Origin: a virus
IMG/VR virus record: IMGVR_UViG_3300043395_002573
Coordinates: 1 to 23,942 of that record
Direction: 5' to 3' (one strand)
DNA length: 23,942 bases
The notes beneath the pieces were generated by a model. It ran no database searches. It was given only the letters and a program-made list of their open reading frames with translations, and had not been told where the DNA came from. Each line of letters opens with the position of its first letter. Positions within the stretch are counted from its first letter, which is position 1. The position numbers were made by a program, and so were the translations under genes. This document shows positions 18,534 through 18,694 of this stretch, piece after piece.

Positions 18534-18694
18534 CTTCACAAACAAGGGCGATCATGGGGTCCGGGCCGGGCAGAGTCTGTTGCTCTAATCCTCTGAGCTA
18601 CGCCCGGCTTTCACCGGGCGGCGGGATTCGAACCCGCGACCTACAGATTAAAGATAACCGGCATCCGTTCGGCTCGCCCTTCACACTTCACAAA
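18534..18694 (-). repeat. 9-bp direct repeats flanking the Y RNA
   Basis: TTTGTGAAG occurs at 18686-18694 and again at 18534-18542, directly outside the two ends of the Y RNA helix. An outer pair, GTTACCCT, lies at 18736-18743 and 18503-18510. Nested direct repeats could be traces of insertion, recognition sites for processing, or chance. Confidence 0.6.
18544..18681 (-). ncRNA. Y RNA (YrlA-like) with circularly permuted tRNA-like domain
   Basis: Minus-strand RNA of about 138 bases. In order: AAGGGCGA (18681-18674), a GCCGAACGG segment, then a tRNA body in permuted order. This body has TCTGT (anticodon-stem 3' strand, 18647-18643), variable AGGTC, T stem-loop GCGGG-TTCGAAT-CCCGC (18637-18621) and acceptor CGCCCGG (18620-18614). 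A GAAA loop closed by a U-G pair follows, then acceptor CCGGGCG (18607-18601), TA, D arm GCTC-AGAGGATTA-GAGC (18598-18582) and ACAGA (18580-18576). The end is TCGCCCTT (18551-18544), a perfect 8-bp partner of the start. All canonical tRNA spacings are kept, but the acceptor end is a loop and the anticodon loop is opened into the long stem. This is the layout described for YrlA-type bacterial Y RNAs, which mimic tRNA and bind Ro through the terminal helix. Position next to rsr is decisive. Confidence 0.9.

What the first reader, a model, noticed from the sequence alone, without database searches (positions are those of the whole stretch)
18576..18647. Circularly permuted tRNA-Lys-like body capped by a GNRA-type loop
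The 3' tRNA half precedes the 5' half, joined by a GAAA loop at the acceptor end. Every canonical element is present with correct lengths: 7-bp acceptor, U8/A9-equivalent TA, 4-bp D stem with GG in the loop, 5-bp anticodon-stem remnant, 5-base variable loop and TTCGAAT T loop. Around the broken anticodon loop the halves read ACAGACTCT and TTAATCTGT, as in bacterial tRNA-Lys(CUU). This suggests that the Y RNA arose from, or converged closely on, a host tRNA. Standard tRNA finders would miss it.
Basis: partly seen in the sequence, partly recalled or inferred. Interest (0 to 1): 0.85.

Follow-up and report, generated by a model that had tools for sequence, protein, structure and literature searches.

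The report
Phage Y RNA that mimics tRNA
A virus of bacteria carries, beside a gene for the RNA-binding protein Ro60, a small RNA folded like a tRNA whose two halves are swapped in order; this kind of RNA is already known, and its apparent likeness to a lysine tRNA is what chance would give.

Summary
On the minus strand, exactly at 18647-18576, lies a tRNA body in permuted order: acceptor stem of 7 bp plus a U·G pair closed by GAAA, U8A9, D arm, 5-bp anticodon helix, 5-nt variable loop, T arm. It sits inside a Y RNA (about 18681-18544), just upstream of and co-oriented with a phage Ro60 gene (18430-16742). This is a YrlA-type bacterial Y RNA. That such RNAs superpose on tRNA by circular permutation is in print (PMC11472068), and phage YrlA is reported (PMC7765460): a new member of a known kind.

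The tRNA-Lys reading fails. With the anticodon loop masked, Lys is among the least similar isotypes of 350 tRNAs; the D arm is Arg-like; UUAA belongs to the linker after the Y motif GGUUAUC; flanks of unrelated Y RNAs assemble into a real anticodon loop in 18% of pairings.

A fresher lead: Ro60 loci carry arrays of Y RNAs, and some permuted modules imitate class II tRNAs (Leu, Ser, Tyr) with long variable arms, a few matching the host's own tRNA D arm almost base for base. One Chloroflexi array also holds an unpermuted tRNA-like Y RNA. I found no report of this, but the key reviews were not readable here.

The parts
18544..18681 (-). YrlA-type Y RNA, whole (outer helix 18681-18674 with 18551-18544)
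   Evidence: fold with outer helix probability 0.89; z -2.42; RF02553 37.9 bits. Ends inferred from the fold, not mapped
18653..18675 (-). Y motif GAGCCGA...GGTTATC on the 5' side of the Ro-proximal helix
   Evidence: motif 442 times on the scanned + strand against 14 on the other in loci L002-L180
18565..18569 (-). CCGGC, 3' strand of the Ro-proximal helix (pairs with GCCGG 18662-18658)
   Evidence: pair probability 0.935
18576..18647 (-). permuted tRNA-like module
   Evidence: scanner score 15.6; none at 9 or above in 300 Markov copies
18643..18647 (-). anticodon-helix 3' strand TCTGT
18621..18637 (-). T arm
   Evidence: also a short tmRNA-model match, 17.7 bits
18601..18620 (-). acceptor-like hairpin closed by GAAA (18612-18609)
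18582..18598 (-). D arm, Arg-like loop AGAGGATTA
18576..18580 (-). anticodon-helix 5' strand ACAGA
18431..18526 (-). second Y RNA, without tRNA-like module, between the first and the Ro60 gene
   Evidence: same Y motif GGGCCGGA...GGTTACC; strong fold (z -1.66); weak match to nematode stem-bulge RNA RF01656, 26.4 bits, E 0.14. Boundaries approximate
16742..18430 (-). phage Ro60 homologue (TROVE plus vWA_Ro60), 562 aa
   Evidence: Pfam 1.1e-45 and 5.2e-55; PDB 2nvo, Ro sixty-related protein Rsr, E 1.6e-125

Best explanation
A phage-encoded YrlA-type Y RNA. Its end-to-end helix with the GGUUAUC motif binds the phage's own Ro60, encoded next door on the same strand; its permuted tRNA-like module is the effector-binding end. 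By analogy with the studied bacterial case, the module holds a host 3'-to-5' exoribonuclease (PNPase) against the Ro60 ring and steers it to structured RNA, and it may be modified by host enzymes that recognise tRNA D and T arms. Shown here: the RNA's architecture, its conservation beside Ro60 and the Ro60 gene. Inferred: expression, Ro60 binding, PNPase tethering, modification, and any benefit to the phage (for example turnover of host or damaged RNA during infection). The tRNA-like form is a constraint of the whole family, not a trace of a recent tRNA-Lys gene.
For: RF02553 match. Ro60 gene starts about 113 bases after the RNA's inferred 3' end, same strand. Permuted modules scoring at least 9: in 16 of 19 phage loci (5 of these 19 were fetched for their Y RNA, and 2 of those 5 show no annotated Ro), 28 of 80 IMG/VR Ro loci, 55 of 80 bacterial Ro loci; 141 modules, none on the opposite strand. 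Y motif 442 against 14 by strand. Anticodon helix kept by covariation. Function of the known relatives taken from passages of PMC8394870 and PMC7790460.
Against: Below the Rfam gathering score (37.9 against 69), though all 14 YrlA hits in 13 of 19 phage loci are too (best 52.1). 52 of 80 IMG/VR Ro loci show no such module in the stretch held, so the module is not needed by every Ro60. Phage, host and expression unknown; no experiment.
Confidence: 0.8

Rival explanations
1. The module was captured recently from a host tRNA-Lys(CUU) gene, for instance by tandem duplication giving 3' half before 5' half.
For: The halves ACAGACTCT and TTAATCTGT together cover the loop CTCTTAA, which occurs in tRNA-Lys(ctt) of the reference set; ARAGORN reads the re-joined sequence as tRNA-Lys(ctt).
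Against: Loop masked, Lys is among the least similar isotypes; D arm Arg-like; UUAA sits in the Y linker; chance rate 18% for flank pairs. The phage's own host tRNAs are unknown, so a host with an unusual tRNA-Lys is not excluded.
Confidence: 0.06
2. A permuted tRNA gene, cut and re-joined into a working tRNA.
For: 3' half before 5' half; all arms present.
Against: Acceptor ends joined by a 4-nt GAAA with no room for CCA or a leader; a 10 x 6 internal loop, not a 3-4-3 bulge-helix-bulge, at the anticodon side (the definition is recalled); anticodon-loop flanks not conserved in relatives; modules lie in a Y RNA context beside Ro60.
Confidence: 0.02
3. The module is a decoy that occupies tRNA-directed nucleases or modifying enzymes deployed against the phage, with Ro60 only stabilising it.
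For: PMC7790460 (passages read) proposes competitive inhibition of an anticodon nuclease by YrlA; phages carry such modules widely.
Against: No anticodon loop is preserved, so an anticodon nuclease would have to bind the body only; loci in bacterial genome contigs have the same module (55 of 80; prophages among them not separated).
Confidence: 0.15

Closest known systems
YrlA (Rfam RF02553), bacterial Y RNA with tRNA-like domain; structure 6CU1 of Salmonella YrlA
   Same: Ro60 beside it; D, T and acceptor arms in permuted order; end helix; circular permutation relative to tRNA reported for 6CU1 (PMC11472068)
   Different: Only 37.9 bits; full 5-bp anticodon helix of its own sequence; phage-borne, next to a Y RNA with no tRNA-like module
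YrlA of actinobacteriophages and jumbo phages
   Same: Phage Ro60 plus permuted module; [quoted passage not shown]
   Different: Ro60 at most 54% identical to the phage homologues aligned; phage family and host unknown
Deinococcus Y RNA (RF01053) and Ro sixty-related protein Rsr (PDB 2nvo)
   Same: Ro60 homologue (E 1.6e-125); Y RNA as tether to PNPase (PMC8394870)
   Different: No RF01053 match in the window at E up to 1
Permuted tRNA genes of archaea and algae (recalled)
   Same: 3' half precedes 5' half
   Different: No BHB-like junction, no CCA or leader, Ro60 context

Membership tests
YrlA (RF02553) | covariance-model score at or above gathering | tested here: not met
   37.9 bits against 69; the same holds for all 14 hits in 19 phage loci, so it marks a divergent branch rather than a different family; E 3.7e-5. 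I therefore call it YrlA-type, not a curated RF02553 member
bacterial Y RNA, YrlA type | Ro60 homologue encoded alongside | tested here: met
bacterial Y RNA, YrlA type | tRNA-like module with acceptor, D and T arms in permuted order | tested here: met
bacterial Y RNA, YrlA type | end-to-end helix with conserved Ro-side motif | tested here: met
   binding itself not tested
bacterial Y RNA, YrlA type | binds Ro60 and tethers PNPase | not testable with these tools
   needs biochemistry
bacterial Y RNA, YrlA type | D and T loops modified by DusA and TruB | not testable with these tools
   reported for YrlA in PMC8394870
tRNA-Lys(CUU) derivative | closest to tRNA-Lys over the body | tested here: not met
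   Lys maximum 0.697, Met 0.818
tRNA-Lys(CUU) derivative | anticodon-loop flanks from a Lys loop | tested here: inconclusive
   sequence fits, but 18% of random flank pairs fit some real loop
permuted tRNA gene | bulge-helix-bulge at the anticodon junction and room for CCA | tested here: not met
   10 x 6 internal loop; GAAA joins the acceptor strands

The most novel reading that the evidence does not exclude
Y RNA effector modules are not one tRNA mimic but an isotype-diverse set. In arrays beside Ro60 they imitate different tRNAs, including class II tRNAs (Leu, Ser, Tyr) with long variable arms, are repeatedly re-derived from or kept similar to the host's own tRNAs, and at least once are used unpermuted with the anticodon arm capped instead of the acceptor. 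The phage RNA here would be an Arg-like member. Ro60 could then be tethered to different tRNA-binding partners by different Y RNAs.
Probability: 0.4. Interest if true: 0.7.

Novelty: new member of a known kind. Interest (0 to 1): 0.38.

Why it matters
For the window itself: it adds a divergent phage Ro60 and Y RNA locus and shows how an anticodon-loop resemblance can arise by chance in a permuted mimic, which warns against reading isotype origin from two short flanks. Beyond it: if permuted modules really copy particular host tRNAs, including class II ones, then the question of what the effector end of Y RNAs recognises becomes directly testable by comparing which host proteins each module binds.

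Tried and rejected
tRNA-Lys origin: rejected by the loop-masked comparison, the D arm and the flank-pair control. Permuted tRNA gene: rejected on the junction and acceptor anatomy. Re-joined sequence against phages: the best places were annotated tRNA-Arg, tRNA-Met, tRNA-Lys or nothing; this query contained a chosen loop and so leans to Lys and Arg. The same with a masked loop in 14 bacterial genomes gave mainly T-arm matches, because N broke the alignments. Host by terminase and portal: no close relative. Single-protein scan of IMG/VR found no relative; the alignment scan found 344, best 80 kept. My first test that class II D arms go with a hairpin abutting the T arm was NOT significant (6 of 12 against 57 of 122 at 4 bp or more, p 1.0). 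A revised test, made after seeing the sequences, was: likeness of the 18 nt before the T arm to class II variable regions p 2e-7, fold energy p 5e-4 (16 against 123). Several loci are close relatives, so these p values are too small. Host match failed for the Ser-like D arms of L112 and L114 (no second copy within 2 mismatches in their genomes), for L120 (only itself exact) and L119. A systematic scan for unpermuted modules 3-25 nt after GGTTAYC gave 4 places, 3 of them ordinary tRNA calls of ARAGORN; only L104 remains. A further Y RNA candidate at 18780-18693(-) folds poorly (z -1.33) and lacks the motif; left out of parts.

Full report
What is there. The window is an IMG/VR virus record of 23,942 bases with terminase, portal, capsid and lytic transglycosylase genes. 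The finding's coordinates are right, but the feature is on the minus strand. Read 5' to 3' from 18647 to 18576 it is: anticodon-helix 3' strand, variable loop, T arm, acceptor 3' strand, GAAA, acceptor 5' strand, U8A9, D arm, A26, anticodon-helix 5' strand. The acceptor is 7 bp plus a U·G pair. The module is enclosed by the helix GCCGG/CCGGC and an outer helix 18681-18674 / 18551-18544, and is followed by a Ro60 gene on the same strand (Pfam TROVE and vWA_Ro60; PDB 2nvo Rsr E 1.6e-125). Rfam calls it YrlA at E 3.7e-5 but under the gathering score.

More than chance. A scanner for this permuted architecture scores the place 15.6; 300 Markov-1 copies of the window give 13 hits, none at 9 or above. 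In loci with or near Ro60 relatives (19 phage loci, 80 IMG/VR, 80 bacterial) it finds modules of score 9 or more in 16, 28 and 55 loci respectively, 141 modules, none on the opposite strand. L016-L020 were oriented by the RNA itself, so the strand statement rests on the others. In 159 loci fetched mainly for their tRNAs it gave 14 hits of 9 or more; by contig number and score I take 13 of them to be the same Y RNAs fetched again, and one to lie in a pair of adjacent tRNAs. Loops of four bases close 80 of the 141 acceptors: 20 GNRA, 31 UNCG. So the GAAA cap is one of two usual solutions.

The anticodon side. Energy alone does not favour the 5-bp helix (probability 0.022). Comparison does. I took modules in which GTTAYC (or GTTAAC) ends 0-6 nt before the helix, without looking at pairing: 24 of 31 form at least 4 pairs, with several pair types at each position, against at most 4 of 31 in six slid registers and a mean of 4.7, maximum 11, of 31 with shuffled partners. 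The other 111 modules form at least 4 pairs in 28 cases (shuffled mean 9.4, maximum 19). The linker between GGUUAYC and the helix is variable in sequence (UGGA, AUGAA, UUGGA, UUGUAA, and UUUAA in the window).

Is it lysine? Three tests say no. First, with the loop masked and 350 tRNAs from the loci fetched by then, the best are Met 0.818, Met 0.803 and His 0.803; Lys (16 tRNAs) reaches 0.697. Thirty of the loci behind this set were fetched by likeness to the re-joined sequence. Second, the D arm TAGCTCAGAGGATTAGAGCA is best matched by tRNA-Arg, 8 of the 9 best. Third, the loop itself: 4 of 31 such modules and 12 of 142 modules assemble to a real anticodon loop of some tRNA, and 173 of 961 pairings of 5' and 3' flanks from this class do so. 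The window's fit to CTCTTAA is therefore unremarkable. The host is unknown, so its own tRNA-Lys could not be compared.

What it most likely does. In the studied bacteria the stem of a Y RNA binds Ro60 and the tRNA-like domain binds PNPase, making a degradation machine for structured RNA; DusA and TruB modify the domain (PMC8394870, passages). PMC7790460 (passages) adds a possible decoy role. [quoted passage not shown] PMC11472068 (passages) states that Y RNA 6CU1 superposes on tRNAs by circular permutation. I could not open Chen 2014, Wang 2018, Sim and Wolin 2018 or Sim 2020. The phage version is most simply the same device made of phage parts plus a host nuclease. That last step is inference.

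Arrays of Y RNAs. The motif GRGYCGN...GGTTAYC (a slightly looser pattern was used) occurs 442 times on the scanned + strand and 14 times on the other in loci L002-L180; 110 of the 442 are followed by a permuted module, and 112 of 143 modules (window and its copy L001 included) have the motif. The window has two such motifs, at 18675 (with module) and 18526 (without), both minus. The second lies where Rfam sees a weak nematode stem-bulge RNA (E 0.14). In a Chloroflexi Ro60 locus, a short RNA at L108 4210-4275 passes that family's gathering score (42.9 against 38). So tRNA-less and tRNA-like Y RNAs stand side by side.

Isotype-diverse modules. Most modules have the common D arm GCTC...GAGC. Sixteen of 139 distinct ones have D arms of Leu, Ser or Tyr type. 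Against the tRNA genes of their own genomes the best cases, by alignment score out of the length of the stretch, are these. L117 4214 scores 20 of 20 with tRNA-Leu(cag) of its genome, though a tRNA-Leu of another genome does too. L108 5325 scores 19 of 21 with its tRNA-Tyr, next isotype 9. L104 4840 scores 18.5 of 20 with tRNA-Ser(tga) of its own genome, other genomes at most 12. L117 4538 and 4996 score 16 of 20 with Ser(tga), against 15 for the best tRNA of another genome. Folded with their T, acceptor and D helices imposed, these modules sit inside complete Y RNAs and most carry a hairpin where a class II variable arm belongs. The statistics are mixed: my first hairpin test failed, a revised one succeeded, and related loci inflate it. 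Host matching failed for L112, L114, L120 and L119. Rfam's YrlA model does not report the class II-like modules of L117, L108, L104 and L112 at E up to 1, which may be why they are not better known. The library search for the word YrlA gave 14 papers, listings only, several of them unrelated uses of the letters; none of the titles or abstract starts mentions isotypes or class II modules.

An unpermuted case. In L104, at 4658, GGTTATC is followed by a tRNA-like body in normal order: acceptor-like helix on the Ro side, D arm, an anticodon arm closed by GAAA, T arm; Rfam's tRNA model passes there (4660-4724, 30.4 bits against 29) and at 4235-4295 (38.3 bits). A scan of L002-L180 and the window found no other of this kind.

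Verdict. The object is a divergent YrlA-type Y RNA of a phage, a new member of a known kind. The lysine origin is not supported. The fresh lead is the isotype diversity of modules in Y RNA arrays.

Noticed in passing
L117 4214, 4538, 4996; L104 4474, 4840; L108 5325; L107 4417; L120 4437: Y RNAs whose permuted module imitates class II tRNAs (Leu, Ser, Tyr) with a long variable arm; some D arms equal or nearly equal those of the host's own tRNAs.
   Followed up: partly
L104 4640-4745 and 4195-4335: Y RNAs with an UNPERMUTED tRNA-like body; in the first the anticodon arm is capped by GAAA and the acceptor-like helix faces the Ro stem; both pass Rfam's tRNA gathering score.
   Followed up: partly
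L108 4210-4275: A short RNA in a Chloroflexi Ro60 locus passes the gathering score of the nematode stem-bulge RNA family RF01656 (42.9 against 38 bits).
   Followed up: no
window 18693-18780 (-): Possible third Y RNA upstream of the tRNA-like one (CTCGGG/CCCGAG ends, GGCGTTACC), but it lacks the full motif and its fold is weak.
   Followed up: partly
L018 (Erwinia phage Ea35-70) 5004-5067; L017 (Xanthomonas phage Olaya) 4506-4601 and 4982-5090: Unannotated YrlA-like RNAs in phages with no annotated Ro60 in the stretch fetched.
   Followed up: no
L010 (Gordonia phage GMA2) 4455-4511: Pistol ribozyme (56.8 bits, gathering 34.5) in a phage tRNA array beside Ro60, tmRNA and YrlA.
   Followed up: no
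window 19359-19808 (-): HD_4 domain protein (Pfam PF13328, 27.7 against 27.2 bits), upstream of the Y RNAs on the same strand.
   Followed up: no
window 5268-7811 (-) and 14148-15203 (-): An N6 adenine DNA methylase protein of 847 aa among structural genes, and a DUF4417 protein.
   Followed up: no
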